64,000 nt of DNA from the NCBI RefSeq assembly GCF_000797465.1, contig NZ_JSWG01000008.1:1-64000 (forward strand), in the 5' to 3' direction. The stretch is from Psychroserpens jangbogonensis. GTDB lineage: Bacteria > Bacteroidota > Bacteroidia > Flavobacteriales > Flavobacteriaceae. Made by a program: the position numbers and the translations under genes. Positions 6,462 through 24,620 of the stretch are shown here, piece after piece; the stretch's first letter is position 1, and every line of letters starts with the position of its first letter. Under the pieces are notes generated by a model. The model worked only from the letters and a program-made list of their open reading frames with translations. It did no database searches and was not told the origin of the DNA.

Positions 6462-6477
6462 ACTTGTATACTAAGCT

Positions 6478-6517: not shown

Positions 6518-6519
6518 AT

Positions 6520-6567
6520 TTATGCTTGTCCTGTTAGTCCAAAGTTTAATGGTCTTGGAGGTTGCTC
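6520..6567 (-). pseudogene. Duplicated 3' tail of the DUF3467 gene (last 15 codons plus stop)
   Basis: Minus-strand translation is EQPPRPLNFGLTGQA-stop, against EQPPIPLNFGPTGQA-stop at the end of the intact gene (6627-6674). The offset is 107 bp. Eight codons differ including the stop; five of the changes are silent, two alter the residue, and TAG becomes TAA. The frame has a stop 24 codons upstream, so this is only a fragment. It begins directly after the T-run of the hairpin at 6568-6593. Confidence 0.8.
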
Positions 6568-6593
6568 AAAAAAATATTTTGAGAACCTCAAAA
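6568..6593 (-). terminator. Small hairpin plus T-run downstream of the DUF3467 gene
   Basis: On the minus strand TTTTGAG-GTT-CTCAAAA (7-bp stem, 3-nt loop) is followed by ATA and seven T. It probably terminates the DUF3467 transcript and separates it from the duplicated tail. Confidence 0.7.
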
Positions 6594-6626
6594 GACTTTA
6601 TGAAATTCTCGCTTTAAATTGAAACC

Positions 6627-6941
6627 CTAAGCCTGACCTGTTGGACCAAAATTTAATGGAATTGGAGGTTGCTCATAATCTTTGATTTCCCCATGAGCTT
6701 TTTCAAATCTATTTACATTATCTCCTAAAGCTTTTAATAAACGTTTAGCATGCTGAGGCGTTAATATAATTCTAGATTTAACTTTACTCTTTGGTGTACC
6801 TGGCATTATACTAACAAAGTCAACTACAAACTCTGACACAGAATGATTAATAATTGCTAGATTAGAATAAGTTCCTTCAGCAATTTTCTCATCTAATTCT
6901 ATATTGATTCCTTTTTTCTTTTGGTTTTTATCGTCAGCCAT
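6627..6941 (-). CDS. DUF3467 family protein
   Basis: The 104-residue product MADDKNQKKKGINIELDE... matches DUF3467, a small conserved protein common in Bacteroidota. It has a lysine-rich start, a central RIILTPQHAKRLLKALGDN segment and a proline-rich end (EQPPIPLNFGPTGQA). There is no signal peptide or membrane segment, so it is cytoplasmic. The function is unknown. It follows rpoC, with a terminator between the two. The last 48 bp are duplicated downstream. Confidence 0.9.
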   Translation of the reverse strand: MADDKNQKKKGINIELDEKIAEGTYSNLAIINHSVSEFVVDFVSIMPGTPKSKVKSRIILTPQHAKRLLKALGDNVNRFEKAHGEIKDYEQPPIPLNFGPTGQA

Positions 6942-6970
6942 AACTATTTGTTTTTAATACTTGAATTTAA

Positions 6971-7001
6971 AATAAAATCCCGTAAAAAACGGGATTTTAT
7001 T
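6971..7001. terminator. Terminator between rpoC and the DUF3467 gene
   Basis: Stem AATAAAATCCCGT / ACGGGATTTTATT (13 bp, loop of five) lies 42 bp downstream of the rpoC stop. It is the probable end of the rpo transcript, although the T-run is formed mostly by the stem itself. Confidence 0.8.
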
Positions 7002-7042
7002 ATTATAATTTGAATTTATAAATTGTCGAAACTATAGTTTCT

Positions 7043-10000
7043 TTAGTTATAATTCATCTCTTCTTTCGCTTTCATCATTTCATTGAATTCTTCTTTAGAA
7101 CCTACGATGATGTTATCAAACTTTCTAACACCAGTTCCTGCAGGAATTCTATGACCTACGATTACATTCTCTTTTAAACCTTCAAGATCATCAACTTTAG
7201 CATTTACTGCTGCTTCGTTAAGAACTTTTGTAGTTTCTTGGAACGATGCCGCAGAGATAAATGATTTCGTCTGTAATGATGCTCTTGTAATACCTTGTAA
7301 AATTGGTGTAGCAGTAGCAGGTTTTGCATCTCTTGCAGTTGCCAACGCTTTGTCTTCTCTACGCAGTATTGAATTCTCATCTCTTAACTCTCTAGAAGAT
7401 AAAATCTGTCCAGCTTTTAAAGATTCAGAATCTCCTGGCTCTTCAACAACTTTCATTCCGAAAATTTTATCATTTTCTTCGATGAAATCTGCTTTATGAG
7501 CTAATTGATCTTCTAAGAATATCGTATCACCAGAATCAATAATTCTAACTTTACGCATCATTTGTCTTACAACAACTTCGAAATGCTTATCATTAATCTT
7601 CACACCTTGTAAACGATATACTTCTTGTACTTCGTTAACTAAATATTGTTGCACTGCAGAAGGTCCTTTTATATTTAAGATATCGTTAGGAGTAATTGAA
7701 CCGTCAGATAAAGGCATACAAGCTTTTACGTAATCATTTTCTTGAACAAGAATTTGATTAGATAACTTCACTAAGTATTTCTTAACCTCACCTTGCTTAG
7801 ACTCAATGATAATTTCACGGTTACCTCTTTTGATTTTCCCGAAAGAAACAACACCATCAATCGCACTTACAACAGCAGGATTAGAAGGGTTACGTGCTTC
7901 GAACAATTCAGTTACACGAGGTAAACCACCTGTAATATCACCAGTTTTAGCAGATTTACGAGGAATCTTAACTAAAATTTTCCCAACCTTAACTTTTTCA
8001 CCATCATCAATCATAAGGTGAGCTCCTAATGGTAAATTGTAAGAGCGTATAGTTTCGCCTTTAGCATCTTCGATAAGAAGGGTAGGAATTAATTTCTTGT
8101 TTCTAGATTCAGAAATTACTTTCTCTTGGAAACCAGTTTGTTCATCAATTTCTACTTGATAAGTGATACCTTGTTCAAGGTTTTCAAACTTCACTTTACC
8201 AGCAAATTCTGAAATAATTACACCATTATATGGATCCCACTGACAAATAATATCTCCTGTTTTCACTTTGTCACCTGGTTTAATGTAGATGAAAGATCCA
8301 TAAGGAATATTATTCGTACTTAATGTGATACCTGTTTTAGCATCTACTAATTTTAATTCTGAAGTACGAGAGATAACAACGTTAACATCATTTCCATCAT
8401 TATCCTTAGTTTTAACAGTTTTTAGATCTTCAATCTCTGCAACACCATCAAACTTCACTGTTAATTTGTTTTCTTCAGAAATGTTACCTGCAACACCACC
8501 AACATGGAATGTACGTAGAGTAAGTTGTGTACCTGGTTCACCAATTGATTGTGCCGCAACGACACCAACAGCTTCACCTCTTTGTACCATTTTACCTGTC
8601 GCTAAATTACGACCGTAACATTTAGAACAAATACCTTTCTTAGCCTCACAAGTTAATGCTGAACGCACTTCAACAGAGTCTAAAGCAGACGTTTGAATAC
8701 GTTTTGCAACATCGTCATGAATATGACCACCTGCTTCAACTAATAGCTCTTCGGTAATTGGATCGTAAACATCATTTAGAGATGTACGACCAACTATTCT
8801 AGCCTCAAGCGTTTCAATTATTTCTTCGTTTTTCTTTAACGCCTTAACTTCAATACCTCTTAATGTTCCACAATCTTCAGTATAAATAATAACATCTTGA
8901 GACACATCAACTAAACGACGCGTTAAGTAACCTGCATCAGCAGTTTTAAGTGCTGTATCGGCAAGACCTTTACGTGCACCGTGTGTAGAGATAAAGTAAT
9001 CCAAAATTGAAAGACCTTCCTTAAAATTAGAAAGAATTGGATTTTCAATAATCGATCCTCCACCTGCAGTAGATTTTTTAGGTTTCGCCATCAATCCACG
9101 CATACCTGTCAACTGACGAATCTGTTCTTTAGATCCACGAGCTCCAGAATCAAGCATCATAAACACCGAGTTAAATCCTTGCTGATCCTCACGGATACGC
9201 TTCATAGACAACTCAGTTAATTCAGCATTTGTAGATGTCCAGATATCAATAACTTGGTTATAACGTTCATTATTTGTTATTAATCCCATGTTATAGTTAC
9301 CCATAATTCCATCAACTAAGCCATTAGCTTTGTCAATCATACCTTGCTTTTCAGGTGGAATAATAATATCACCTAAACTGAAAGATAGACCACCTTGGAA
9401 GGCGAATTTATATCCTTGTGTCTTAATTTCATCTAAGAAATCAGCTGTTACTGGTACACTCGTCTTTTTAAGAATTCCATGAATAATATCTCGTAAAGAT
9501 TTCTTAGTCAATACCTCATTAATGTAACCTGCTGCTGCTGGAACTTTTTCGTTAAAAAGTACACGACCTACAGTTGTTTCAATAATTTGAGTAGTTAACT
9601 CTCCTTCTTCATTAAAATCTTGAGTTCTTACTTTAATACCTGCATTTAATTCTACTTTTTTCTCGTTGTAAGCAATAATTACTTCTTCTGGAGAGTAGAA
9701 TGTTAAGCCTTCACCTATAACTTTAACTTCAGCAGTAGATTTTCTGAGCTTGGTCATATAATAAAGACCAAGTACCATATCCTGAGAAGGAACTGTTACT
9801 GGAGCACCATTTGCTGGGTTTAAGATATTATGAGATGCCAACATTAATAATTGACATTCTAAAATAGCTTCTGGTCCAAGTGGTAAATGTACTGCCATCT
9901 GGTCACCATCAAAATCGGCATTAAATGCAGTACACACTAATGGGTGTAACTGTATTGCTTTCCCTTCAATTAATTTTGGTTGGAAAGCCTGGATACCAAG

Positions 10001-11344
10001 TCTGTGTAATGTAGGAGCACGGTTCAAAAGAACTGGATGTCCTTTTAAAACATTCTCTAAGATATCCCAAACAACTGGCTCTTTTCTATCTATAATTTTC
10101 TTAGCAGATTTTACAGTTTTTACAATTCCTCTTTCAATTAGTTTTCTAATGATAAAAGGCTTGTAGAGTTCTGCTGCCATATCTTTAGGCAATCCACATT
10201 CAAATAATTTTAATTCTGGTCCAACAACAATTACCGAACGTGCAGAATAATCAACACGTTTTCCAAGTAAGTTTTGACGGAAACGCCCTTGCTTACCTTT
10301 TAATGAATCGGATAACGATTTTAATGGTCTGTTAGAATCTGTTTTTACTGCAGAAGCTTTACGAGTGTTATCAAATAATGAATCTACAGATTCTTGCAAC
10401 ATACGTTTCTCATTACGAAGAATTACTTCTGGAGCTTTGATTTCAACTAAACGCTTTAAACGGTTGTTACGAATAATAACACGACGATATAAATCATTTA
10501 AATCTGATGTTGCAAAACGACCACCATCTAAAGGCACCAATGGTCTTAATTCCGGTGGAATGATTGGAATAGCCTTCATGATCATCCATTCTGGTCTATT
10601 CTCTCTATTTAAATTAGAGTCTCTAAACGCTTCAACAACTTGTAAACGTTTTAACGCTTCAGTTTTACGTTGTTTAGAAGTTTCAGTATTTGCTTTATGA
10701 CGTAATTCAAATGATAATTCGTTTAAGTCGATTCTTGATAATAAATCGATTAAACATTCAGCTCCCATTTTAGCTATAAACTTATTTGGGTCTGTATCAT
10801 CTAAATGTCTGTTTTCCGGTGGAAGACCTTCCATGATAGTTAGGTACTCTTCTTCCGTTAAGAAATCCAACTTTTGTAATGGTTCTCCTTCAGCATTCAT
10901 TGCTTCACCTGGTTGTATAACTACATAGCGTTCGTAATAGATAATCATATCTAAACGCTTAGAAGGTAAACCAAGTAAATATCCTATTTTGTTTGGTAAC
11001 GAACGGAAATACCAGATATGAGCTACAGGCACAACAAGGTTGATGTGTCCTACTCTATCACGACGTACTTTCTTTTCAGTTACTTCAACACCACAACGGT
11101 CACAAACGATTCCTTTGTAGCGTATTCTCTTATATTTACCACAAGCACATTCAAAATCCTTTACAGGACCAAAAATACGCTCACAGAATAAACCGTCACG
11201 TTCAGGTTTATGTGTTCGATAATTAATAGTTTCTGGTTTTAAAACTTCACCACGAGAAGCTGCCAAAACAGATTCTGGAGATGCGAGACCAATAGAAATT
11301 TTACTAAATTTCTGTATTACATTCTTATCTTGTCTTCTTGCCAT
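7043..11344 (-). CDS. rpoC: DNA-directed RNA polymerase subunit beta'
   Basis: The 1433-residue product is the catalytic beta' subunit. The N-terminal zinc site uses C66, C68, C81 and C84 ([20 protein letters not shown]). The Mg2+-binding motif NADFDGD lies at about residue 474. The second cysteine cluster ([16 protein letters not shown]) is at about 895-910, and trigger-loop and bridge-helix segments such as [13 protein letters not shown] are intact. It is full length for Bacteroidota. It is transcribed with rpoB upstream, across a 77-bp spacer with a heptad-periodic inverted repeat. Confidence 0.99.
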
Positions 11345-11354
11345 AATTACTTTT

Positions 11355-11417
11355 ATAGTCTTGAGTTTTCAATCTTCAGTACACAGTTAAACTGTGTACT
11401 GTTGACTGATTACTGTT
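11355..11417. repeat. Heptad-periodic inverted repeat between rpoB and rpoC
   Basis: Nine consecutive 7-mers on the plus strand read ATAGTCT, TGAGTTT, TCAATCT, TCAGTAC, ACAGTTA, then AACTGTG, TACTGTT, GACTGAT, TACTGTT. The first five carry (C)AGT-like cores and the last four carry the complementary ACTG core. The centre folds into a perfect 11-bp hairpin (CAGTACACAGT-TAA-ACTGTGTACTG, 11377-11401). It fills most of the 77-bp spacer and has no ORF. Confidence 0.75.
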
Positions 11418-11421
11418 TTTT

Positions 11422-14400
11422 TTATTCTTCTAATCTAATATCTAATCCTAATCCTTTCAATTCGTGCATAAGAACGTTGAAAGATTCAGGTAGTCCTGGT
11501 TCTGGCATTGGCTCTCCTTTTACGATAGCTTCGTAAGTTTTAGCTCTACCTATTACATCATCAGATTTTACTGTTAAGATTTCACGTAATGTACTTGATG
11601 CTCCATAAGCTTCAAGTGCCCAAACTTCCATCTCTCCAAAACGTTGACCACCAAATTGTGCTTTACCACCTAAAGGTTGTTGTGTAATTAAAGAGTAAGG
11701 ACCTATGGAACGTGCGTGCATCTTATCGTCAATCATGTGACCTAACTTAATCATATAAATCACACCTACGGTTGCTGGTTGATCAAAACGATCTCCAGTT
11801 CCACCATCATATAAGTATGTATGACCATATCTTGGTACACCTGCTTCATCTGTAAACGCGTTGATTTGATCTAGAGTTGCACCATCAAAAATTGGTGTCG
11901 CATAAGTACGACCTAATTTTTGTCCAGCCCAACCAAGAACAGTTTCGTAAATCTGTCCGATGTTCATACGAGATGGTACACCTAATGGGTTTAATACGAT
12001 ATCAACAGGAGTTCCATCTTCTAAGAATGGCATATCTTCTTGACGAACGATACGAGCAACAATACCTTTGTTACCGTGACGTCCTGCCATTTTATCACCA
12101 ACTTTTAGTTTACGCTTTTTAGCAACATAAACCTTAGCTAATTTGATAATACCTGCTGGTAATTCATCACCTACAGAAATTGTAAACTTCTCACGACGTA
12201 ATGATCCTTGAAGGTCATTCTCTTTAATCTTATAGTTGTGGATTAAATCTGCAACTAACGTATTTAAATGATTGTCTGTCGTCCAAACTCCTGAAGTTAA
12301 ATGTGTATAATCATCTACAGAATTTAACATCTTAAGTGTATATTTCTTTCCTTTAGGAATGATTTCTTCACCTAAGTCATTATAGATACCTTGAGCCGTT
12401 TTACCATTTACAAGAGCGAATAATTTTTCAACTAAAACAGCTTGTAAATCATCAAACTTCTTGTAATAGATATTTTCTAATGCTTCAATATCTTCTTTAT
12501 CTTTTGCTCTCTTACGTTTATCTTTAATTGCTCTTGAGAATAATTTCTTCTCAATAACAACACCATGTAATGAAGGAGATGCTTTTAAAGAAGCATCTTT
12601 TACATCACCTGCTTTATCTCCAAAGATTGCACGTAATAATTTTTCTTCTGGTGTAGGATCTGATTCTCCTTTTGGTGTAATTTTACCAATAAGAATATCT
12701 CCTGGCTTAATTTCAGCACCAATTCTAATCATACCGTTTTCATCAAGGTCTTTTGTAGCCTCCTCAGAAACGTTTGGAATATCATTAGTTAATTCTTCGT
12801 TACCTAATTTGGTATCTCTAACTTCTAATGAATACTCATCAATATGAATAGATGTGAATATATCGTCACGAACTACTTTTTCTGAAATAACGATTGCATC
12901 CTCAAAGTTGTAACCTTTCCATGGCATAAATGCCACTTTCATGTTACGTCCTAATGCTAATTCTCCATTTTCAGTAGCATAACCTTGACAAAGTACTTGT
13001 CCTTTTTTAACCTTATCACCTTTCTCAACGATTGGTTTCAAGTTAATAGACGTTCCTTGGTTGGTTTTTCTGAATTTTACTAATGGATATGTTTTGGTAT
13101 CACTATCAAAACTCACCATTCCAGCTTCTTCAGAACGCTCGTATTTTATAGTTACTTCGTTTGCATCAACGTACTCAACAGTTCCATTTCCTTCAGCATT
13201 TATCAATACTCTTGAATCTGAAGCTACTTGACGTTCAAGACCAGTACCTACGATTGGTGCTTGAGGGCGCAATAATGGTACAGCCTGACGCATCATGTTA
13301 GATCCCATCAATGCACGGTTGGCATCATCATGCTCTAAGAACGGAATCAAAGATGCCGAAATAGAAGCAATTTGGTTAGGCGCAACATCTGTATAATTTA
13401 CATTTGCTGGATCAATAACTGGGAAATCACCTTCTTGACGTGCAATAATTTTATCTTCTAAGATTTTACCATTATCGTCTACACGAATATTCGCTTGAGC
13501 GATTAACATGTCTTCCTCTTCTTCTGCACTTAAATATACAGGTGCATTCTTAATATCTACAACACCATTCTCTGATTTTCTGTAAGGTGTTTCAATGAAT
13601 CCCATTGAATTCACTTTAGCATAAACTGAAAGAGAAGAAATTAATCCAATGTTTGGTCCCTCAGGAGTTTCAATTGGACAAAGTCTTCCGTAGTGTGTAT
13701 AGTGAACATCACGAACCTCGAAACCTGCTCTTTCTCTAGATAAACCTCCAGGTCCTAAAGCTGATAAACGACGTTTGTGTGTAATCTCTGCCAGTGGATT
13801 GGTTTGATCCATAAACTGAGATAACTGATTAGTTCCAAAGAATGAATTAATAACAGAAGATAAAGTCTTCGCGTTAATTAAATCAATCGGTGTAAATACT
13901 TCATTATCACGAACATTCATACGCTCACGAATGGTACGAGCCATACGTGCTAAACCAACACCAAATTGAGAAGATAATTGCTCACCTACTGTACGTACAC
14001 GACGGTTAGATAAGTGATCAATATCATCAATCTCTGCTTTAGAATTGATTAATTCGATTAAATATTTGATGATAGTAATGATATCTTCTTTAGTAAGCAC
14101 TTGCTTATCCATTCCGATATCCAACTGTAATTTTTTGTTCATTCTATAACGACCTACTTCACCTAATGAGTAACGTTGGTCAGAGAAGAATAATTTGTCA
14201 ATAATACCACGTGCTGTTTCCTCATCTGGCGGCTCAGCATTTCGTAATTGACGATAGATGTGCTCAACAGCTTCTTTTTCAGAGTTTGTTGGATCTTTCT
14301 GTAATGTATTATGAATAATTGCGTAATCTCCTTGTTGTGCACTTTCTTTATGTAAAAGAATAGTTTTTACACCAGCTTCAAGGATTTCTTCAATATTATC

Positions 14401-15234
14401 TTTATCTATAATAGTGTCACGATCTAAAACAATTTCGTTACGTTCAATAGATACAACTTCACCAGTATCTTCATCTACGAAATCTTCATGCCATGTATTT
14501 AACACACGAGCAGCTAGTTTACGACCAACAACTTTTTTAAGACCAGATTTTGATACTTTAACTTCTTCAGCAAGATCAAAAATCTCTAAAATGTCTTTAT
14601 CACGTTCAAAACCGATAGCTCTGAATAATGTTGTAACAGGTAATTTTTTCTTTCTATCAATGTACGCATACATTACCTGATTAATATCTGTAGCAAATTC
14701 TATCCAAGACCCTTTGAAAGGGATTACTCTTGCAGAATATAGCTTAGTACCATTTGCATGGAAAGATTGACTAAAAAATACACCTGGAGATCTATGTAAT
14801 TGTGATACAACTACACGCTCTGCACCATTGATACAGAATGTTCCACTAGGTGTCATATATGGAATTGTTCCAAGATATACATCTTGAACAATTGTTTCAA
14901 AGTCTTCATGTTCTGGATCTGTACAATACAGTTTTAAACGTGCTTTTAATGGCACACTGTATGTAAGTCCTCTTTCGATACACTCTTCAATTGAATATCT
15001 AGGTGGATCAATGAAATAATCCAAGAATTCTAATACGAATTGATTACGTGTATCTGTAATTGGAAAGTTTTCCATGAAGGTGTTATATAACCCTTCATTT
15101 CCTCTTTGTTCTGATTTTGTCTCTAACTGGAAAAAATCCTGGAAGGATTTAATTTGAATATCCAAGAAATCTGGATAATCAGTTCTGTTAATTATAGAAG
15201 AGAAATTTAATCTTTCAGCTGTATTTGCTAACAT
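11422..15234 (-). CDS. rpoB: DNA-directed RNA polymerase subunit beta
   Basis: The 1270-residue product has the complete beta-subunit architecture: the protrusion and lobes; the rifampicin-binding region with [23 protein letters not shown] and [20 protein letters not shown]; the [15 protein letters not shown] block; and a C-terminal [24 protein letters not shown] clamp motif. The rifampicin region looks wild type (S in FMDQ context, H in [10 protein letters not shown]). It is expressed with rplJ/L upstream and rpoC downstream. Confidence 0.99.
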
Positions 15235-15298
15235 CGATGAACGAGATTTTGATTAAAAAAAATATTTATTTTCCTGTGCACTTTTTTATACACAAAAG

Positions 15299-15336
15299 GG
15301 TTTAGGTCATTCCGACTATTTCGAAAGACCTAAACC
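15299..15336 (-). promoter_or_regulatory. Hairpin in the rplL-rpoB spacer (putative attenuator or processing site)
   Basis: A perfect 10-bp stem GGTTTAGGTC / GACCTAAACC has an 18-nt loop that itself contains a TTCG...CGGAA partial stem. It lies 22 bp after rplL and 64 bp before rpoB. On the minus strand it is followed by CCTTTTGTGTATAAAAAAG, a weak T-tract. In E. coli the same spacer holds an attenuator and an RNase III site, so a similar role is plausible. Confidence 0.55.
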
Positions 15337-15358
15337 ATAATTTGTAGGTTTGTTAAGC

Positions 15359-15733: not shown

Positions 15734-15793
15734 TTTCTACCGTTTTTAATAATTTTAATAAAATATAATTTGTTTAAGTGCGTACTTATTTGA

Positions 15794-16315: not shown

Positions 16316-16335
16316 AATAATAAAGATTTAACTAC

Positions 16336-17025
16336 TTATGCGAATTTTACATCAATTGCGATACTAGGACTCATCGTACTAGACATAAAGATGCTCTTCA
16401 TGTAAATACCTTTAGATCCAGTTGGCTTTAATTTATTTATAGTCGTTAACAATTCCATTGCGTTGTCCTTTAATTTATCAGCACTAAATGATGCTTTACC
16501 TATAGGAGCGTGTACGATTCCTGTTTTATCAACTTTAAAATCAATTTTACCAGCTTTCACTTCTGCTACTGCTTTAGCAACATCCATAGTAACTGTTCCT
16601 GTCTTTGGATTCGGCATTAAACCTCTTGGGCCTAATACTCTACCTAAAGGACCTAATTTACCCATGATAGCAGGCATAGTAACGATAACGTCAACATCTG
16701 TCCAACCACCTTTAATTTTTTCAAGGTACTCATCAAGCCCAACGTAGTCGGCTCCAGCAGCTTTAGCTTCCTCCTCTTTATCAGGAGTTACTAATGCTAG
16801 AACTTTCATGTCTTTACCTGTTCCATGTGGAAGAGACACTACTCCTCTAACCATTTGATTGGCTTTACGAGGATCTACACCTAATCTAATTGCTAAATCA
16901 ACAGAAGCATCAAATTTTGTGTAAGTGATTTCCTTTAATAATACAGTTGCATCTTCAAGAGAGTATAATTTATTATTCTCTACCTTAGCTACTGATTCTT
17001 TTCTCTTTTTTGTTATTCTTGCCAT
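16336..17025 (-). CDS. rplA: 50S ribosomal protein uL1
   Basis: The 229-residue uL1 forms the mobile L1 stalk near the E site. The conserved [19 protein letters not shown] segment and the split two-domain layout are intact. It follows rplK after an 11-bp spacer, the usual rplKA order. Confidence 0.98.
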
Positions 17026-17036
17026 TTCAAAAATTT

Positions 17037-17477
17037 TTAGTTAGGTGCTTGACCACCTTTAACTGTGATTCCCATTGATCTTGCAGTACCAGCAACCATC
17101 TTCATAGCAGACTCGATTTTAAAGGCATTTAAATCTACCATTTTATCTTCTGCGATAGCTTTAACTTGATCCCAAGTTACTTTTGCCACTTTCTTTCTGT
17201 TCGGTTCTCCAGATCCTTTCTTTACTTTGGCCGCTTCTAATAATTGTACTGCCGCAGGAGGTGTTTTGATCACGAAATCAAAAGATTTGTCTTTGTAAAC
17301 AGAAATTACAACTGGAAGAACTTTACCAGGTTTATCCTGAGTTCTAGCGTTGAATTGCTTACAAAATTCCATGATGTTAACTCCAGCAGCACCTAAAGCG
17401 GGTCCAACCGGTGGCGACGGATTCGCTGCACCTCCCCGAACTTGTAATTTAACTACTTTACCTAATTCTTTTGCCAT
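17037..17477 (-). CDS. rplK: 50S ribosomal protein uL11
   Basis: The 146-residue uL11 of the GTPase-associated centre has the N-terminal signature [20 protein letters not shown] and the rRNA-binding C-terminal domain ending in [13 protein letters not shown]. It is downstream of nusG after 71 bp. Confidence 0.98.
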
Positions 17478-17548
17478 TTTACTTATTTTAGTTTTGCATC
17501 TCTTCTATTTTGAAGCTAAAAGACACGCTATCTATATTGTAACAATTA

Positions 17549-18109
17549 TTAAACTTTTTCAACTTGCATATAACTCAATTCTAATGGCGTTTTTCTTCCG
17601 AAAATTTTAACCATTACTTCTAGTTTACGCTTTTCTTCATTTATCTTTTCAACAACACCATCAAACCCATTAAATGGACCATCAATAACTTTTACTGTCT
17701 CACCAATAGTGAATGGTATCGCTACATTTAAATCAGCATCAACAGCCAATTCATCAACTTTACCTAACATTCTATTAACCTCAGTTTGTCTTAATGGAAC
17801 AGGGTCTCCTCCTTTTGTTTCACCTAAAAAACCAATAACATTAGTTATAGATTTAATAATATGAGGAATCTCTCCACTTAAATTTGCTTGTATCATTATA
17901 TAACCAGGAAAATATACTTTTTCCTTGTTTATTTTTTTTCCTTTACGGATTTGAATTACTTTTTCAGTAGGTACTAAAACTTGATCAACATAATCTTCTA
18001 AACCTAATCTAGAAATTTCATTTTCTATATAAGCCTTGATTTTATTTTCTTGACCACTTACAGCTCTAACTACGTACCACTTTTTATTTACACTTGTCTC
18101 AGACATCAT
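17549..18109 (-). CDS. nusG: Transcription termination/antitermination factor NusG
   Basis: The 186-residue product has an NGN domain (KKWYVVRAVSGQENKIKAYIE) and a C-terminal KOW domain (VKVIDGPFNGFDGVVEKINEEKRKLEV). It binds RNA polymerase and couples it to ribosomes or Rho. Two ATGs are adjacent; the second (MSETSVNKKWY) is equally plausible. It follows secE by 19 bp. Confidence 0.97.
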   Translation of the reverse strand: MMSETSVNKKWYVVRAVSGQENKIKAYIENEISRLGLEDYVDQVLVPTEKVIQIRKGKKINKEKVYFPGYIMIQANLSGEIPHIIKSITNVIGFLGETKGGDPVPLRQTEVNRMLGKVDELAVDADLNVAIPFTIGETVKVIDGPFNGFDGVVEKINEEKRKLEVMVKIFGRKTPLELSYMQVEKV

Positions 18110-18128
18110 TCTTTGGTTTTATAGTTTG

Positions 18129-18320
18129 TTATATCAACTCAAAATAAGCTTTGATAACTTTACTGAAAACAGTATCAACTCCCCAAATAGCTAATGAAAA
18201 AATTATTGAAAACACAGCTACTAAAATAGTTAAGCTTTGCGCCTCAGACCATGGTGTCCAAGTCACGTTGTTTTTTAATTCTTCAAAAGATTCTTTAATA
18301 TAATTTATAATTCCTGCCAT
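18129..18320 (-). CDS. secE: Preprotein translocase subunit SecE
   Basis: The 63-residue single-span SecE (MAGIINYIKESFEELKNNVTWTPWSEAQSLTILV...) has the amphipathic helix and conserved W-x-P-W-S-E before the transmembrane segment. The frame is open upstream to 18365, but that extension overlaps tRNA-Trp, so ATG 18320 is chosen. Its place between tRNA-Trp and nusG is standard. Confidence 0.95.
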   Translation of the reverse strand: MAGIINYIKESFEELKNNVTWTPWSEAQSLTILVAVFSIIFSLAIWGVDTVFSKVIKAYFELI

Positions 18321-18335
18321 TTGATTTTGTATTTG

Positions 18336-18408
18336 CACGGGTTGAGAGACTCGAACTCCCGACACCTGGTTTTGGAGACCAGTGCTCTACCAACTGAGCT
18401 AAACCCGT
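18336..18408 (-). tRNA. tRNA-Trp (CCA)
   Basis: Acceptor stem ACGGGTT/AACCCGT, D-arm TTTAGCTCAGTTGGTAGAGC, anticodon loop CTCCAAA with anticodon CCA, and T-arm GGGAGTTCGAGTCTC. It is 73 nt without an encoded CCA end and lies between tuf and secE. Confidence 0.97.
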
Positions 18409-18420
18409 AAATATAAATCA

Positions 18421-18447
18421 AGGCGTTCGCCTTTGACGAACACCTTA
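18421..18447 (-). repeat. Hairpin between tuf and tRNA-Trp
   Basis: AAGGCGTTCG / CGAACACCTT pairs with one mismatch around a 7-nt loop, flanked by A/T-rich arms that can extend the stem. There is no T-run in the minus direction, so a processing signal separating tuf mRNA from the tRNA is more likely than a terminator. Confidence 0.5.
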
Positions 18448-18471
18448 ACTCATATTTATATAATAAATATT

Positions 18472-19659
18472 TTAGTCTAAAATCTCAGTAACCTGACCTG
18501 CACCTACCGTTCTACCACCTTCACGAATTGCGAAACGTAAACCTACGTTCATTGCAATTGGTTGAATTAATTCAACGATGATTGTTAAGTTATCTCCAGG
18601 CATTACCATTTCAACTCCATCAGGAAGCGCAATGTTTCCAGTTACATCAGTTGTACGTACGTAAAACTGTGGACGATAGTTATTATGGAATGGAGTATGA
18701 CGTCCACCTTCTTCTTTTTTAAGTACATAAACCTCAGCTTTAAATTTAGCATGTGGTGTTACTGAACCTGGCTTACAAATAACCATACCTCTAGAGATTT
18801 GAGATTTTTCAATACCTCTTAGTAAGATTCCTGCATTATCTCCAGCCTCACCTCTATCAAGAATTTGACGGAACATTTCAATACCAGTAATAGTAGATGT
18901 TAATTTCTCAGCACCCATACCAATGATCTCAACTGGATCACCTGTATTACCAACACCAGTTTCGATACGACCTGTAGCAACAGTTCCACGACCAGTAATT
19001 GAGAATACATCTTCAATTGGCATTAAGAAAGGCTTATCCATATCACGTACTGGCTCTTCGATCCAAACATCAACAGCTTCCATTAATTCCATTACAGTAT
19101 CTACCCATTTTTGCTCACCGTTAAGTGCACCTAAAGCTGAACCAGCAATTACAGGACCATTATCACCATCATATTCATAGAATGACAACAATTCTCTAAT
19201 TTCCATTTCAACTAATTCTAATAATTCATCATCATCAACCATATCCACTTTATTCATGAATACAACCATACGAGGAATCCCTACCTGACGTCCTAAAAGG
19301 ATGTGCTCACGAGTTTGTGGCATTGGACCATCTGTAGCAGCTACAACTAAAATCGCACCATCCATTTGAGCAGCACCAGTAACCATGTTCTTTACGTAAT
19401 CGGCGTGACCTGGACAGTCAACGTGAGCGTAGTGACGATTTGCTGTTGCGTATTCAACGTGTGATGTATTAATTGTAATACCTCTTTCTTTCTCTTCTGG
19501 AGCATTATCAATTTGATCAAACGACATTGCGTTTGATAAACCTGCATCAGCTAATACTTTAGTAATAGCAGCAGTTAAAGTTGTTTTACCGTGATCTACG
19601 TGTCCAATAGTACCTATGTTAAGGTGTGGTTTTGAACGATCGAAAGTTGCCTTTGCCAT
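18472..19659 (-). CDS. tuf: Elongation factor Tu
   Basis: The 395-residue EF-Tu has G1 [10 protein letters not shown]3 DCPGH and G4 NKVD, plus complete domains 2 and 3 (the latter with [19 protein letters not shown]). It delivers aminoacyl-tRNA to the ribosome. It sits in a cotranscribed block of four upstream tRNAs and tRNA-Trp/secE downstream. Confidence 0.99.
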
Positions 19660-19718
19660 GTTTAATTTATTTAATCTTATTTATATTAGTGTTCAATTTA
19701 ATTCAATACAAAAAAAAG

Positions 19719-19790
19719 AGCCAATGACGAGATTTGAACTCGTGACCTCTTCCTTACCAAGGAAACGCTCTACCCCTGAGCTACACCGGC
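19719..19790 (-). tRNA. tRNA-Thr (GGT)
   Basis: Acceptor stem GCCGGTG/CATTGGC, anticodon arm TTTCC-TTGGTAA-GGAAG with anticodon GGT, and T-arm GTCACGAGTTCAAATCTCGT. It is 72 nt, the last of the four tRNAs before tuf. Confidence 0.95.
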
Positions 19791-19829
19791 TTTAAAGGTT
19801 TTTTTTCTAAACAGAAACGTTTACTCAAC

Positions 19830-19859
19830 AATCGAATCAACACTTGAGTTGATTCGATT
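19830..19859 (-). repeat. 12-bp perfect hairpin between tRNA-Gly and tRNA-Thr(GGT)
   Basis: AATCGAATCAAC / GTTGATTCGATT with a 6-nt loop lies in the spacer of the polycistronic tRNA-tuf transcript. It is a candidate processing hairpin. A T-tract follows only about 20 nt later in the minus direction. Confidence 0.6.
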
Positions 19860-19862
19860 TAG

Positions 19863-19935
19863 AGCGAGAGACCGGGTTCGAACCGGCGACATTCAGCTTG
19901 GAAGGCTGACGCTCTACCAACTGAGCTACTCTCGC
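19863..19935 (-). tRNA. tRNA-Gly (TCC)
   Basis: Acceptor stem GCGAGAG/CTCTCGC, anticodon loop CTTCCAA with anticodon TCC, and T-loop GGTTCGAACC. 73 nt. Confidence 0.96.
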
Positions 19936-19978
19936 ATTATTTACAACTATCTTACTAGTTGAAGGTTTCAAAATTTTG

Positions 19979-20060
<82 letters not shown>

Positions 20061-20114
20061 TATTTTAAAGAACATTTGCTAAAATTAACTTGTGTTATTC
20101 TTAGACTTTTTTAG

Positions 20115-20188
20115 AGCCGATGGAGGGACTCGAACCCACGACCTGCTGATTACAAATCAGCTGCTCTAGCCAGCTGAGCTACATCGGC
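20115..20188 (-). tRNA. tRNA-Thr (TGT)
   Basis: Acceptor stem GCCGATG/CATCGGC, anticodon arm CTGAT-TTGTAA-TCAG with anticodon TGT, and T-arm GTGGGTTCGAGTCCC. 74 nt, the first gene of the tRNA-tuf transcript. Confidence 0.96.
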
Positions 20189-20210
20189 TTTTATATAACT
20201 TTTTGGCTAT

Positions 20211-20237
20211 AAAAAAAGCCCGCTATTTCTAACGGAC
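20211..20237 (-). terminator. GAAA-loop terminator after hpf
   Basis: Minus strand GTCCGTTA-GAAA-TAGCGGGC (8-bp stem with two G-T pairs) is followed by seven T. It ends the xerC-hpf transcript and lies at the start of the tRNA-tuf transcript. Confidence 0.8.
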
Positions 20238-20239
20238 TG

Positions 20240-20269
20240 CAAATGTAAAGATTTATTTATTTATTCAAA
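20240..20269 (-). promoter_or_regulatory. Putative promoter of the tRNA-tuf block (TTTG - 18 bp - TACATTTG)
   Basis: Minus-strand TTTG at 20269-20266 and TACATTTG at 20247-20240 with 18-bp spacing is a near-ideal Bacteroidota promoter. The expected start at about 20233 falls inside the terminator hairpin of the upstream operon. Confidence 0.7.
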
Positions 20270-20289
20270 ACATTTTTTGAAAAATTTTA

Positions 20290-20592
20290 CTACATATGTG
20301 CTCTTAATTTTTCTTTTCGCTTTTTTAACTGTCTTTCTAACGACGAAACTGCCATATCTGTGCCTTCTTCAAATGTTTTACATTGTTTTTTTACAATAAA
20401 ACTATCTCCAGGGACTTTAACTCTAGCTTCAAAAATCTTATTTTCCTTATCACTTGTATTTTCAAGCTTAAGATATACGTCAGATTGTATCACTTTATCA
20501 TAAAACATATCTAGCTTATCCATGCGCTTTTGAATAAAGTCAATTAGTTTTTTATCTGCGTTAAAATTTACGGATTGTGTGTTTACCTTCAT
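20290..20592 (-). CDS. hpf: Ribosome hibernation-promoting factor (HPF/RaiA family, short form)
   Basis: The 100-residue HPF/YfiA domain (MKVNTQSVNFNADKKLIDFIQKRMDKLDMFYDKV...) has the conserved basic C-terminal part (RQLKKRKEKLRAHM). There is no long C-terminal dimerisation domain, so it is a short form. The family binds the 30S decoding region and silences ribosomes in stationary phase. It lies 27 bp downstream of xerC. Confidence 0.92.
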   Translation of the reverse strand: MKVNTQSVNFNADKKLIDFIQKRMDKLDMFYDKVIQSDVYLKLENTSDKENKIFEARVKVPGDSFIVKKQCKTFEEGTDMAVSSLERQLKKRKEKLRAHM

Positions 20593-20619
20593 ATTCTATC
20601 TTTTATTAGTTAGATAATA

Positions 20620-21510
20620 TTACTTTTTACTTCTTGGATGTGTATTTGAATACACTTTTTTTAATTCTGCTATACTATTATGTGTATAGATTTGTGTTGC
20701 CGCTAAACTAGAATGACCTAGTAGTTCTTTTACAGCATTTAGGTTTGCACCTTGGTTTAGTAAATGAGTCGCAAATGAGTGCCTTAAAATATGTGGACTA
20801 CGTTTTACCTTGGAAGATGCCTTACTAAAGTAATCATTTATAATTCTGTAAACAAGTGTTTCATAAATTTTAACCCCTTTTTTGGTTAAAAACAAATAAG
20901 AACCATCTTGTATAACATTGAGTTCACTTCTTGCAATTACATAAGTTTTCAAAGTTTCAACTACAGATGGTATTAACGGAATAAATCTTTCCTTATTTCG
21001 TTTTCCTAAAACCTTTAAGGTTTTATTTGCAATATCAACATCGATAAGTTTAAGCTGAACAAGTTCTATACGTCTGATACCAGTTGCATAAAACAGTTCA
21101 ATAATTAATCGATTTCTTAAGCCTTCAAAATCTGTAGCAAAATTTAATTCTTCAAGTACTGTCTTTATTTCCTGTTCAGAAAAAGGAACTTGTATTTTTT
21201 TACTGGTCTTTAATGCTTTGTGCTTGGTAAGAGGATTAACTTCTATCTCTTCAATTTTTAAAAGAAATCTATAATAGGAATTTAAAGAAGAAATCTTTCT
21301 GTTAATACTTCGGTTTGAAATTCCGCTATCTACTAATAGTATTATCCAACTCCTTATTTGTTGATAGTTGACATTTGTAATTGATTTAGAATCAAATTCA
21401 GATACAATAAAATCAGAAAAATCTTGAATATCTTTAAGATAGGCCTTGAGTGTTAACTGAGAATAGTTTTTTTCAAGTAATAAATAATCTGAGAATGATT
21501 GCAATGACAT
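20620..21510 (-). CDS. Tyrosine recombinase of the XerC/XerD family
   Basis: The 296-residue product has an N-terminal SAM-like core-binding domain (1-90) and a catalytic domain with R146 (TGIRRIELV), K170, H240-x-x-R243 (HILRHSFATHLL), H266 (GHSSLAATQIYTH) and nucleophile Y275. Length and intact motifs fit the chromosomal dimer-resolution recombinase. It stays in one cluster with rpsU and hpf and shows no sign of lying on a mobile element. XerC versus XerD cannot be decided here. Confidence 0.93.
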   Translation of the reverse strand: MSLQSFSDYLLLEKNYSQLTLKAYLKDIQDFSDFIVSEFDSKSITNVNYQQIRSWIILLVDSGISNRSINRKISSLNSYYRFLLKIEEIEVNPLTKHKALKTSKKIQVPFSEQEIKTVLEELNFATDFEGLRNRLIIELFYATGIRRIELVQLKLIDVDIANKTLKVLGKRNKERFIPLIPSVVETLKTYVIARSELNVIQDGSYLFLTKKGVKIYETLVYRIINDYFSKASSKVKRSPHILRHSFATHLLNQGANLNAVKELLGHSSLAATQIYTHNSIAELKKVYSNTHPRSKK

Positions 21511-21569
21511 TTAAACACTTTAGAATTAAATCTAAAATACAAAGTTTTAATTACAATCTTGTTAGAAAC

Positions 21570-21599
21570 AAAAAAATCCCATTATTTCTAATGGGATTT
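21570..21599 (-). terminator. GAAA-loop terminator after rpsU
   Basis: Minus strand AAATCCCATTA-GAAA-TAATGGGATTT (11-bp stem) runs into a T-tract. It separates rpsU from xerC and has the same loop as the terminator at 20211-20237. Confidence 0.85.
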
Positions 21600-21617
21600 A
21601 CTATCATTTAAACACAA

Positions 21618-21812
21618 TTAAACGGCTTCTTGATCTCTTAGACCTTGAACGTACTGTGCTTTTTGTACTTGTTCTCTTCTTTGAACAGAAGGTTTTGTGA
21701 ATTGTTTGCGTTCTTGCAACTGGTTTTTAACCGTTGTCTTCACAAACTTTCGTTTGTAACGTTTTAACGCTCTATCTATATTTTCTCCTTCTTTAACTGG
21801 TATTCTTAACAT
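21618..21812 (-). CDS. rpsU: 30S ribosomal protein bS21
   Basis: The 64-residue basic protein (MLRIPVKEGENIDRALKRYKRKFVKT...) is full length for Bacteroidota. It has a strong Shine-Dalgarno, unusual for this phylum, and its own promoter and terminator. In Flavobacterium ribosomes bS21 helps sequester the 3' end of 16S rRNA, and the rpsU SD is thought to serve autoregulation (published work on F. johnsoniae, recalled from memory). Confidence 0.97.
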   Translation of the reverse strand: MLRIPVKEGENIDRALKRYKRKFVKTTVKNQLQERKQFTKPSVQRREQVQKAQYVQGLRDQEAV

Positions 21813-21821
21813 AGTGTCTTA

Positions 21822-21831
21822 ACCTCCTCTC
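21822..21831 (-). promoter_or_regulatory. Strong Shine-Dalgarno of rpsU (GAGAGGAGGT)
   Basis: AGGAGGT lies 9-10 nt before the rpsU ATG. Other genes in the window that I checked lack a comparable purine-rich core. The site would pair with the 16S 3' end only when bS21 is absent from the ribosome. Confidence 0.85.
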
Positions 21832-21851
21832 TTTTAAAATTTTTAAGGCTG

Positions 21852-21881
21852 CAAATATAGGAAGGAATTTAAGATTTCAAA
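21852..21881 (-). promoter_or_regulatory. Putative rpsU promoter (TTTG - 18 bp - TATATTTG)
   Basis: Minus-strand TTTG at 21881-21878 and TATATTTG at 21859-21852 with an 18-bp gap, giving a leader of about 33 nt that contains the SD. The promoter is flanked by a 6-bp inverted repeat (AAGGCT 21845-21850 / AGCCTT 21887-21892). Confidence 0.7.
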
Positions 21882-21924
21882 ATAAAAGCCTTGATTTTTA
21901 AATAAGAAGATGTATTATTTTAAA

Positions 21925-23352
21925 TTACTGCTTAAAAAGTGACGCGCGTTTACTTAAATCTTTTATTAGTTGCTCGTCTTCTTCACTCTCTAATAAAATA
22001 TTGTAGTTTTTCCAAAATGCTTTATCATATGGCCTTGGCGCAAAGATATCTGAATCCCAATCTGCTAGTAAAGCTTCAGCAATAATTTGATCGTCTTCAA
22101 TAATATCTGAAAACAAGATTTCTTGAATGGTATAATAAAAACGTTCTTCATTATAATATTTAGCCTTCTCCTCTTCCGTTAACTTTTCTGAGGTCTTCAA
22201 ACCAACGTTAACCAACTTAGGTGTTTCATAATAAATATAATTTGGATACATCTTGTCGTTGTATTCCATATAGGTCATTACTAATTTATGGTTAAGCTGA
22301 GTTCCAAAAAGAGTTTTACTTCTACTTTTTTGAGCATCAGAAGCAGCAACGAGTTCGTATTCAATTTTTTTAATTGCATAATTGTCCCAATAAATATAAA
22401 CCCAACCTTGAGCTTTAAAGCCTTCATTAAAAATACCATCAGTGTCTAGACCAACAAAATCCTTACTATCTGAGATTTGAATTTTATAAATCTTACGATC
22501 ATTATCGACTAAGACCGTATCCAATTTAAACTGATGCTTATCTAAAATATTCTCTCCGAATAAAGCTTTGGCAGCATTAGAATTCCTTACCAAGTTTAGT
22601 TTTCCTTTAAACAAGTTTTCGAGTCCGTTAACTCGAGTATCATTCCATTTAATAGCTTTAACCAAAGAAGATGTTTTGATGGTATCTCTTTTTAAGTTTT
22701 TAGCTTTTAGTTTCCTGTTATTTTCATAACGCTTTAAATAAGAATAATAAGAGAATATACTATCTACATCACGAAGATCATAGCTTTTGCGAACCTGATC
22801 CACATTGATTTTTAGATGATCTTCTGAAGACGAAGAGTAACCTGAATCATAAACAGTAATAGCACTTTCAATTAGCCATTTAAACTCTTTAGAATTTCGC
22901 TCTTTATGTCTTAAGAATCCTTTTTGAATGTAAGCAGAATCTGGAAGATTTTCAGATAATCTTTCTATAGCTTTTAAAATAATATCATTCCCAGTTGTTG
23001 GACGGTTTTCAGCAATAAGGATAATTTCATCTAAAGCAGCAATATCTTCCTCAAGATAAATCTCTTCTGTATTATCAAATTCGTTAACTGGTATTTTAAA
23101 GCTTTTATAACCTATAGAAGAAATGATAAGTGTATCTAATTGTAATTCATTAGAAACTTGTAACACAAATTTTCCATCCTGATTACTTACAGTTCCGATT
23201 GTAGTATTTTTTATATAAATACTAGCACTCTCAATTGGCATTAAGGTCGTGAAATCTACAATCTTATTTTTCAACTCAGTTTGAGAAAACGAAAGCATAC
23301 TGAATAAACAGAAACAGTATATTATGAATTGCTTAGCTAATTGAGATTTCAT
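21925..23352 (-). CDS. Secreted protein with carboxypeptidase-D regulatory-like N-terminal domain
   Basis: About 475 residues. A signal peptide (MKSQLAKQFIIYCFCLFSMLSFSQ) is followed by a beta-sandwich of the CarboxypepD_reg-like type (LKNKIVDFTTLMPIESASIYIKNTTIGTVSNQDGKF, about 25-110), which in Bacteroidota commonly precedes an outer-membrane or periplasmic domain. The remaining about 360 residues are an uncharacterised beta-rich region. ATG 23352 is chosen: the open frame reaches 23400, but the 16 extra residues come from the region beside the duplicated gene tail and precede a clean signal peptide. The function is unknown; the protein is likely periplasmic or outer-membrane associated. 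Confidence 0.8.
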   Translation of the reverse strand: MKSQLAKQFIIYCFCLFSMLSFSQTELKNKIVDFTTLMPIESASIYIKNTTIGTVSNQDGKFVLQVSNELQLDTLIISSIGYKSFKIPVNEFDNTEEIYLEEDIAALDEIILIAENRPTTGNDIILKAIERLSENLPDSAYIQKGFLRHKERNSKEFKWLIESAITVYDSGYSSSSEDHLKINVDQVRKSYDLRDVDSIFSYYSYLKRYENNRKLKAKNLKRDTIKTSSLVKAIKWNDTRVNGLENLFKGKLNLVRNSNAAKALFGENILDKHQFKLDTVLVDNDRKIYKIQISDSKDFVGLDTDGIFNEGFKAQGWVYIYWDNYAIKKIEYELVAASDAQKSRSKTLFGTQLNHKLVMTYMEYNDKMYPNYIYYETPKLVNVGLKTSEKLTEEEKAKYYNEERFYYTIQEILFSDIIEDDQIIAEALLADWDSDIFAPRPYDKAFWKNYNILLESEEDEQLIKDLSKRASLFKQ

Positions 23353-23368
23353 TATAATTAATTTTAGA

Positions 23369-23413
23369 TTATGTCGCTGGCTTATAATCTTTCTTATCAA
23401 TTACCATTTTTGC
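23369..23413 (-). pseudogene. Duplicated 3' tail of the acyl-CoA dehydrogenase gene
   Basis: Minus-strand translation AKMVIDKKDYKPAT-stop is identical to the end of the intact gene (23454-23498). The 45 bp differ at four positions, all silent. The offset is 85 bp. Similarity begins immediately after the 7-bp hairpin at 23414-23430 and stops at the TAA. The fragment forms part of the leader of the downstream gene. Confidence 0.82.
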
Positions 23414-23430
23414 AAATTGTTGTACAATTT
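23414..23430 (-). repeat. 7-bp hairpin bordering the duplicated tail
   Basis: AAATTGT-TGT-ACAATTT (read on the plus strand), 3-nt loop, touches the start of the tail copy. The size matches the hairpin at 6577-6593 next to the other tail copy. Confidence 0.6.
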
Positions 23431-23453
23431 TCGCAAAAAAGATAATACCCTTT

Positions 23454-24620
23454 TTATGTTGCTGGTTTGTAATCTTTCTTGTCAATTACCATTTTTGCGA
23501 TAATCTCTCTTAAAATTTCAGATGTTCCTCCACCAATTGGTCCAAGTCTACTATCACGTAATAATCTAGCTAAAGGATATTCTTCCATGTAACCATATCC
23601 TCCCAAAAATTGAAGGCAATCATACATTACTTCATCTGCCATTTTTGTACACTGAAGTTTAGACATTGTCGCTTCTTTTACAACATACTCACCTTGATCT
23701 AATCTACTAGCAACCGAATAATTAAACTCTTTACAGATTTCCATTTCGGTATATCTATCTGCTATTTTATGACGTAGTGCTTGAAATTTATTGATTGTTC
23801 TTCCGAAAGCTTCGCGCTCACCCATATACTTTAAAGTATATTCTAATGCAAACTCAGCTCTTGCATGCGCATTAATACCCATGATTAAACGCTCTAAAGC
23901 AAAATGTTGCATGATATAAGGAAAACCTTTATTCTCTTCTCCCATTAAATTGGACGAAGGAATTACAACATTATCAAATGCGATTTCTGCTGTATCTGAA
24001 GCTCTCCAACCTAATTTATCTAATTTAGTAGCTGAAATACCAGGTGTATCTCTATCCATAATAAAGATACTAATTCCTTTATTCCCTAGTTCAGGATTTG
24101 TCTTTGCGGCAACTACTAAATAGTCGCTATAAACACCATTAGTTATAAATGTTTTAGATCCATTAATAACGTAAGTATCATCTTTTTTCACAGCCGTAGT
24201 TCTCATACCTGCGACATCACTACCTCCAAAAGGTTCAGTAATACATAGGCAACCTATTTTTTCTCCTGTAATACTCGGAGCTAAATATTTTTCTTTGATA
24301 GCATGATCACCTTCTTTATTAACATGTGTCATTGCTAAGTAAGCATGAGCCCAAATTGCAGCAGCAAATCCACCTGAATTTACCTTCTGTAGTTCTTCGA
24401 GAAGAATTACAGTATAGAATAAATCTAAGTCCATTCCTCCATATTCTTCAGGATAAGCAATTCCAAAGAATCCCATTTCACCAAATTTCTCCCAAATAAA
24501 GCGTTCTATCTGTCCTGTTTCCTCCCATTTTTCAATGTGCGGAACCACTTCTTTTTGTAAAAAATCTTTTAAACTCTGTCTAAACAACTCATGTTCTTCA
24601 GTGAAGTACCTACTATTCAT
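23454..24620 (-). CDS. Acyl-CoA dehydrogenase
   Basis: The 388-residue FAD-dependent dehydrogenase oxidises an acyl-CoA to the 2-enoyl-CoA. Acyl-CoA_dh_N is about 8-120, the middle domain has CLCITEPFGGSDVAGM (124-139) and NGSKTFITNG, and the C-terminal helical domain ends in PIGGGTSEI. The usual Glu in the YEGT motif is Gly here. As in long-chain and isovaleryl types, the base is probably E243 in FALERLIMG. The substrate is not predictable. It is the last gene of a minus-strand run from DUF2851, 21 bp after the HhH gene, and its last 45 bp are duplicated downstream. Confidence 0.93.
   Translation of the reverse strand: MNSRYFTEEHELFRQSLKDFLQKEVVPHIEKWEETGQIERFIWEKFGEMGFFGIAYPEEYGGMDLDLFYTVILLEELQKVNSGGFAAAIWAHAYLAMTHVNKEGDHAIKEKYLAPSITGEKIGCLCITEPFGGSDVAGMRTTAVKKDDTYVINGSKTFITNGVYSDYLVVAAKTNPELGNKGISIFIMDRDTPGISATKLDKLGWRASDTAEIAFDNVVIPSSNLMGEENKGFPYIMQHFALERLIMGINAHARAEFALEYTLKYMGEREAFGRTINKFQALRHKIADRYTEMEICKEFNYSVASRLDQGEYVVKEATMSKLQCTKMADEVMYDCLQFLGGYGYMEEYPLARLLRDSRLGPIGGGTSEILREIIAKMVIDKKDYKPAT

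What the first reader, a model, noticed from the sequence alone, without database searches (positions are those of the whole stretch)
6520..23498. Recurring architecture: gene end - short spacer - 7-bp stem/3-nt loop hairpin - copy of the gene's last 45-48 bp
In both cases the spacer is 40-59 bp and the copy is 15-16 codons long. A hairpin with exactly 7 bp stem and 3-nt loop (6577-6593; 23414-23430) lies at or within 9 bp of the copy's start. Two cases with the same geometry suggest a shared mechanism, such as recombination or uptake footprints at gene ends or insertion of a tiny hairpin-bearing element that restores the 3' end, as integrative elements do at tRNA genes.
Basis: inference. Interest (0 to 1): 0.75.

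Follow-up and report, generated by a model that had tools for sequence, protein, structure and literature searches.

The report
Hairpin-linked repeats of gene tails
In a family of marine bacteria the last 15 or so codons of two unrelated genes are repeated just after the gene, once to at least seven times, with a hairpin at each junction that keeps matching the gene's own codons; what this does is not known.

Summary
Both genes (DUF3467, 6627-6941; an acyl-CoA dehydrogenase, 23454-24620; both minus strand) are followed by a copy of their tail (scores 28.5 and 35.0; best of 10,855 shuffles 16.0). The 7-bp/3-nt hairpins exist but are parts of larger ones that span the copy's start.

No third case appeared in about 21% of the own genome. 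Yet the same two tails are copied in many relatives: DUF3467 in 14 of 22 same-genus loci and at least 20 of 299 family genomes; the dehydrogenase in 6 of 23 and 12 of 199. Each unit is tail, stop, spacer, R', short loop; R' is the reverse complement of the gene's codons. Where copy and gene differ, R' fits the gene in 60 of 74 units. Spacers diverge to near chance while R' and the loop start persist. Arrays go with particular silent codons.

Best reading: a template-switch tandem duplication, later expanded, lost and exchanged with the gene, with the pairing between R' and the gene constrained. Function unproven. A new variant of hairpin-bearing tandem repeats.

The parts
6627..6941 (-). DUF3467 gene, first host gene
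   Evidence: Pfam PF11950, E 3.1e-33; ORF list
6667..6675 (-). R arm inside the gene (TGAGCAACC), start of the copied tail
   Evidence: sequence; arm compared
6569..6626 (-). spacer with R' and loop, 58 nt between stop and copy
   Evidence: sequence; copy offset 58
6580..6589 (-). R' (GAGGTTCTCA), followed by loop AAATATTT at 6572-6579
6558..6589 (-). junction hairpin, 13 bp with one bulge
   Evidence: RNA fold, z -4.66
6520..6568 (-). tail copy of DUF3467; 9 differences from the gene, 7 at third codon positions
6477..6518 (-). terminator-like inverted repeat directly after the copy
   Evidence: self-complementary match; sequence
23454..24620 (-). acyl-CoA dehydrogenase gene, second host gene
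   Evidence: Pfam PF00441, PF02771, PF02770
23489..23500 (-). R arm inside the gene (TCGCAAAAATGG)
   Evidence: sequence
23414..23453 (-). spacer with R' and loop, 40 nt between stop and copy
   Evidence: sequence; copy offset 40
23400..23446 (-). junction hairpin with a 2-nt bulge on the 5' side
   Evidence: RNA fold, z -3.83
23369..23413 (-). tail copy of the acyl-CoA dehydrogenase; 4 differences, all at third codon positions

Best explanation
The copies are units of a self-derived tandem repeat: arm R and the rest of the gene's tail, the stop codon, a spacer of mostly 30-65 nt, then R' (reverse complement of R) and a short loop, after which the next R begins. Origin (inferred): a replication template switch near the gene's end copied a few codons backwards, giving R', and then resumed at R, giving a tandem copy of the tail with a hairpin at the junction. 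Afterwards units multiply, are lost cleanly and exchange sequence with the gene through the direct repeats (patchiness and similarity shown; the route inferred). Spacers drift, but R' and the start of the loop persist, and R' follows the gene's own codons more than the neighbouring copy (shown). So the pairing of R' with the gene's end, in mRNA or in single-stranded DNA, is probably constrained: either it does something for the 3' end of the transcript, or the same mutational process keeps correcting it (inferred, undecided).
For: Layout at two unrelated genes in many species. R' matches its own genome's gene arm better than other genomes' arms, 0 of 5000 permutations as good, 42 genomes. Where copy and gene arm differ, R' fits the gene in 60 of 74 units, the copy in 7, both alike in 7. 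Loop start A[ACG]AT in 38 of 43 DUF3467 genomes and (A)A[AC]AT in 12 of 14 acyl loci, located by complementarity alone, while spacers are at shuffle level or nearly so. Arrays go with silent codons: TAC 34 of 41 against 24 of 73; ATTATCGC 13 of 13 against 7 of 35; independent pairs on the trees agree, median p 0.03 in each. R' absent where there is no copy: 4 of 73 above their own 95th percentile, as chance gives. Hairpins more alike than spacers within 20 arrays, p 0.02. RNA folds z -3.5 to -10.6, six junctions. Template switching can create and correct hairpins (PMC8794818, part 1 of 6 read).
Against: No function was shown, and most genomes of the family lack copies, so nothing essential is at stake. 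The loop AMAT differs from the plain reverse complement TAAT, which a fresh switch would give. Part of the fit of R' to the gene is geometry, since many copies begin one or two letters inside the arm. In the two closest pairs (gene-body identity 0.90 or more) R' (0.56) is less alike than the spacer (0.74). GAG showed no tree-corrected link with arrays. The permutation test does not correct for relatedness. In one search tails are not more alike than spacers (p 0.55), nor hairpins than tails (p 0.22).
Confidence: 0.5

Rival explanations
1. Neutral hotspot: the gene's own codons (ATTA followed by CG in both genes) make a mutation-prone site at which the same duplication arises again and again, and quasipalindrome correction keeps R' matched to the gene. 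Nothing is selected.
For: Patchy presence: at least 30 changes among 114 rows for DUF3467 and 12 among 48 for the acyl gene. Link to particular silent codons. Template switching is known to correct stems (PMC8794818).
Against: The loop start AMAT, which is not the gene's reverse complement, persists across genera at both genes while spacers do not.
Confidence: 0.25
2. A small site-specific mobile element that inserts at ATTA(T)CG near a gene's end and restores the 3' end, as integrative elements do at tRNA genes.
For: Geometry; both sites share ATTA(T)CG; arrays go with that sequence; the last tail lies next to the terminator-like hairpin (by eye).
Against: Each unit carries the host's own tail and complements its codons; only two genes are hit. 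6 of 14 DUF3467-array genomes of the genus show neither a Y1 transposase nor an RVT_1 match (one of the six is only 88% complete). Tyrosine recombinases were not tested.
Confidence: 0.12
3. Import by homologous recombination: a foreign gene end replaced the native one and the native tail stayed behind as the distal copy.
For: Gene-copy differences lie mostly at third codon positions: DUF3467 20/14/97 in 36 ungapped of 39 loci, acyl 5/6/27 in 13 of 14.
Against: Does not make R' or arrays; many first copies are nearly identical to their own gene; frequent exchange between gene and copies gives the same bias.
Confidence: 0.08

Closest known systems
Template-switch mutations and quasipalindrome correction (PMC8794818, part 1 of 6 read; PMC7202029, abstract start in a listing)
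   Same: One event can give a reverse-complement piece that forms a hairpin, and stems are kept matched by the same process
   Different: Here the event goes with a tandem copy of a gene's last codons and recurs at the same two genes across genera
REP/BIME hairpin repeats (PMC3733652, abstract start in a listing; BIME arrays recalled)
   Same: Hairpins after genes, sometimes in tandem arrays
   Different: Stem taken from the host gene, two genes only, no genome-wide copies found in the sample
Bacterial minisatellites / VNTRs (recalled)
   Same: Head-to-tail units of about 84-110 nt, variable number, decayed end units
   Different: Unit begins in the coding end of a gene; spacers diverge while R' and the loop start persist
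Integrative elements at gene 3' ends (recalled)
   Same: Gene end restored, second tail downstream
   Different: Unit of about 100 nt without a gene; arm R' tracks the gene's silent codons
Diversity-generating retroelements (recalled)
   Same: Second copy of a gene's 3' end with a hairpin nearby
   Different: In the window's DUF3467 pair 6 of 9 differences have A in the copy, but 0 of 4 in the acyl pair (by eye); 9 of the genus' 14 DUF3467-array genomes have no RVT_1 match

Membership tests
REP/BIME | many copies in a genome | tested here: not met
   2 of 2171 ORF ends in stretches of five genomes; loop word at control level in the own genome, 8+12 against 10+11
REP/BIME | conserved GTAG or CGTC tag at one end (from the abstract start of PMC3733652) | tested here: not met
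   neither word at the foot of the two window hairpins (by eye); other loci not checked
Minisatellite / VNTR | tandem units of variable number | tested here: met
   1 to 7 copies after the gene
Minisatellite / VNTR | number varies within a species | not tested
   one genome per species is held
Template-switch product | reverse-complement piece of a nearby sequence at the junction | tested here: met
   R' complements the gene arm
Template-switch product | event reconstructed between an ancestor without and a descendant with the unit | not tested
   no ancestral reconstruction was made
Integrative element at a gene 3' end | integrase or other recombinase gene of its own | tested here: not met
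   units of about 84-110 nt hold no gene; an enzyme elsewhere was not excluded
IS200/IS605 relatives | Y1 transposase in the genome | tested here: not met
   17 of 22 genus genomes, many with arrays, have no PF01797 match
Diversity-generating retroelement | reverse transcriptase in the genome | tested here: inconclusive
   9 of 22 genus genomes have an RVT_1 match, the own genome included; 9 of 14 DUF3467-array genomes have none
Any Rfam family | match above gathering score at the arrays | tested here: not met
   window, L069, L165, L005: five tRNAs only

The most novel reading that the evidence does not exclude
A cis-acting element built from its host gene: a hairpin whose 3' arm is a copy of the gene's codons and whose 5' arm is held complementary to those codons across genera, so that silent sites at a gene's end are tied to a downstream repeat array, at two unrelated genes about 17 kb apart.
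Probability: 0.3. Interest if true: 0.8.

Novelty: new variant of a known kind. Interest (0 to 1): 0.6.

Why it matters
If the pairing between R' and the gene's end is constrained, synonymous codons at the end of a gene are tied to a repeat downstream of it, in a system with many natural replicates. It would also be a natural record of template switching at fixed places, in which origin, correction and loss of hairpins can be followed across species. Practically, some assemblies end inside these arrays, so copies are hidden.

Tried and rejected
Equal 7-bp/3-nt hairpins as the signature: rejected, they are sub-stems of unlike parts of two larger hairpins. Many gene ends per genome: not seen in the sampled stretches; five other ORFs with scores of 18 or more (L400, L130, L312 and two in L297) are, by eye, repetitive proteins or doubtful ORFs. 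Shared loop word as a genome-wide motif: at control level; among 1880 short-loop hairpins those starting AAAT are no commoner than those starting TTTT, 32 each. Covariance model R1: its alignment had the acyl rows misaligned at the 3' arm; its strongest matches in 22 genus genomes were DUF3467 sites, most weaker ones were not followed up. Translation of the copies: unit lengths are often not multiples of three and no constant start lies in frame (by eye). R' kept without a copy: not seen. GAG and CAA codons: a raw difference; for GAG pairing on the tree gave no link, for CAA the output was cut and only partly seen. Of mobile-element enzymes only Y1 transposase and RVT_1 were tested.

Limits of the counts. 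One search looked at 152 loci: 137 with a gene found, 52 of these with copies at its low threshold, 15 dropped as 'no gene'. The set is biased (best matches, some genomes twice, 8 loci fetched because they had several tail matches). 43 distinct loci with copies and 80 without entered; 41 and 73 the tree, which is a quick tree with many weak branches. In one search the loop was located by a pattern that itself required A[ACG]A[TC]; one search repeats this without it. Recounted row by row, one search gives 38 of 43; my notebook's 41 of 43 was a count of single positions and is wrong. One search left out L083, which held.

Papers: PMC8794818, part 1 of 6 read; the others in search listings only. 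Searches that could have shown an earlier description: (DUF3467 alone gave one unrelated paper); I saw nothing like this in those listings, which hold open-licence PMC papers only.
Full report
What is there. On the minus strand the DUF3467 gene (6627-6941), next to a 1433-aa ORF that I take for rpoC (label recalled, not tested), and an acyl-CoA dehydrogenase gene (23454-24620) are each followed by a copy of their tail, at 6520-6568 and 23369-23413. The matches score 28.5 and 35.0 with a best control of 16.0 in 10,855 shuffles. The two 7-bp/3-nt hairpins exist as stated, but the stable predicted structures are larger and bridge the end of the spacer and the beginning of the copy.

How common. 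Within a genome it is rare: tail against the next 300 nt for 2171 ORFs in stretches of five genomes gave these two genes and five further scores of 18 or more that are, by eye, repetitive proteins or doubtful ORFs (own genome covered to about 21%). Across species it is the same two genes. DUF3467: 14 of 22 same-genus loci. In the family a tail-peptide search gave more than one match in 28 of 299 genomes, 281 of which had any match; in 20 the second match is next to the gene, in 2 (G060, G114) it sits at a contig end, in 6 it is remote and weak. This is a lower bound, since decayed copies are missed (G192 has copies but one match). Acyl-CoA dehydrogenase: 6 of 23 genus loci; in the family 14 of 199 genomes had more than one match, 123 any match, and 12 had the second next to the gene (my count). 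Named genera with DUF3467 copies include Winogradskyella, Mangrovimonas, Algibacter, Tamlana, Seonamhaeicola and Aestuariivivens. Arrays reach 7 clear copies (G022, G035). In G021 and G018 contigs end inside arrays, and in G240, G060 and G114 tail matches sit at contig ends, so numbers there are minima.

Anatomy. Each unit is R, tail, stop, spacer, R', loop, followed by the next R. R lies in the codons of Glu-Gln-Pro with the last letter of Tyr (DUF3467) or of Ile-Ala-Lys-Met (acyl gene). At DUF3467 the last tail is mostly followed by a terminator-like hairpin, as is the gene's own stop in genomes without copies (by eye). Among 780 pairs of 40 DUF3467 genomes the spacer identity exceeds shuffles by 0.00 to 0.03 at gene-body identities of 0.70 to 0.90 (778 pairs), with R' at 0.69 to 0.70 and the loop octamer at 0.77 to 0.81; in the two closest pairs the spacer reaches 0.74 and R' only 0.56. 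In the acyl set (91 pairs of 14 loci) the excess is 0.03 to 0.07, R' 0.70 to 0.93, octamer 0.64 to 0.78. Located by complementarity alone, the loop begins A[ACG]AT in 38 of 43 DUF3467 genomes and (A)A[AC]AT in 12 of 14 acyl loci; the plain reverse complement of the gene would be TAAT in both.

R' follows the gene. R' matches its own genome's gene arm better than other genomes' arms: 0 of 5000 permutations as good, 42 genomes, relatedness not corrected. The silent changes are mirrored: where the gene has T at the Tyr codon R' has A in 6 of 7, where it has GAA R' has T in 4 of 6. Where the copy's arm differs from the gene's, R' fits the gene in 60 of 74 units, the copy in 7, both alike in 7. Part of this is geometry, because many copies begin one or two letters inside the arm.

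Link to silent codons. With DUF3467 copies TAC is used in 34 of 41 tree rows, without in 24 of 73 (Fisher 2e-7). At the acyl gene 13 of 13 with copies read ATTATCGC against 7 of 35 without (4e-7). Independent pairs on the trees agree: 8 pairs on well supported branches in each, 5.6 the same way against 0.2 and 5.7 against 0.0, median p 0.03, range up to 0.6 and 0.25. GAG gave no such link. Either this sequence is needed for gain, or an existing array holds it in place. Both sites contain ATTA followed by CG within one letter.

Dynamics. Presence is patchy: at least 30 changes among 114 rows and 12 among 48. R' is not found without a copy (4 of 73 above their own 95th percentile). Gene and first copy differ at codon positions 20/14/97 in 36 ungapped of 39 DUF3467 loci and 5/6/27 in 13 of 14 acyl loci, more at third positions than a freely decaying copy should show, as expected if copies and gene keep exchanging sequence or if the copy was coding not long ago. 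In last copies third positions inside R agree with the gene more (0.88) than those of the rest of the tail (0.73); in inner copies 0.90 and 0.82. Within 20 arrays hairpins are more alike than spacers (0.92 against 0.88, p 0.02); tails are not (0.90, p 0.55).

Mechanism. A template switch that copies a few codons backwards and resumes at R yields this layout in one event, and template switching is known to create and correct hairpins (PMC8794818, part 1 of 6 read). I take it as the most likely origin, by inference. What keeps R' and the loop start is open: a role of the RNA 3' end, or correction at a hotspot. A mobile element is less likely: units carry the host's own tail, two genes are hit, and 6 of 14 DUF3467-array genomes of the genus (G004, G005, G007, G011, G016, G020; G011 only 88% complete) have neither a Y1 transposase nor an RVT_1 match. 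The own genome does have two RVT_1 matches.

Novelty. No Rfam match at four sources and nothing like it in the listings. It works like hairpin-bearing tandem repeats and fails the tested features of REP/BIME. I file it as a new variant of a known kind, with a 0.3 chance of a new type of cis element.

Noticed in passing
window 18336-20188: Five tRNA genes in a row on the minus strand between the two host genes.
   Followed up: no
L337 (G021:C18), L065 (G021:C9), L071 and L072 (G018), L250 (G240): Contigs end inside or at the tail arrays, so long arrays probably break short-read assemblies.
   Followed up: partly
L400, around 14031-14267 (minus): A direct repeat of about 50 nt roughly 190 nt apart in the own genome, next to a doubtful 78-aa ORF.
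   Followed up: no
L124 (G006) and L297 (G092): Repetitive coding sequence with recurring short motifs, which also gives tail-like repeats by chance of its own periodicity.
   Followed up: no
L312, 16385-19618 (minus): A 1077-aa ORF in a repetitive protein whose frame ends in the middle of a repeat that goes on downstream.
   Followed up: no
G046 L165 and G000 window, DUF3467 and acyl-CoA dehydrogenase: The two array-bearing genes lie about 17 kb apart in several genera (for example G046 at 2508590 and 2525454).
   Followed up: partly
DUF3467 loci: First copies start 32 to 69 nt after the stop, mostly near 33-39 or 54-61.
   Followed up: no
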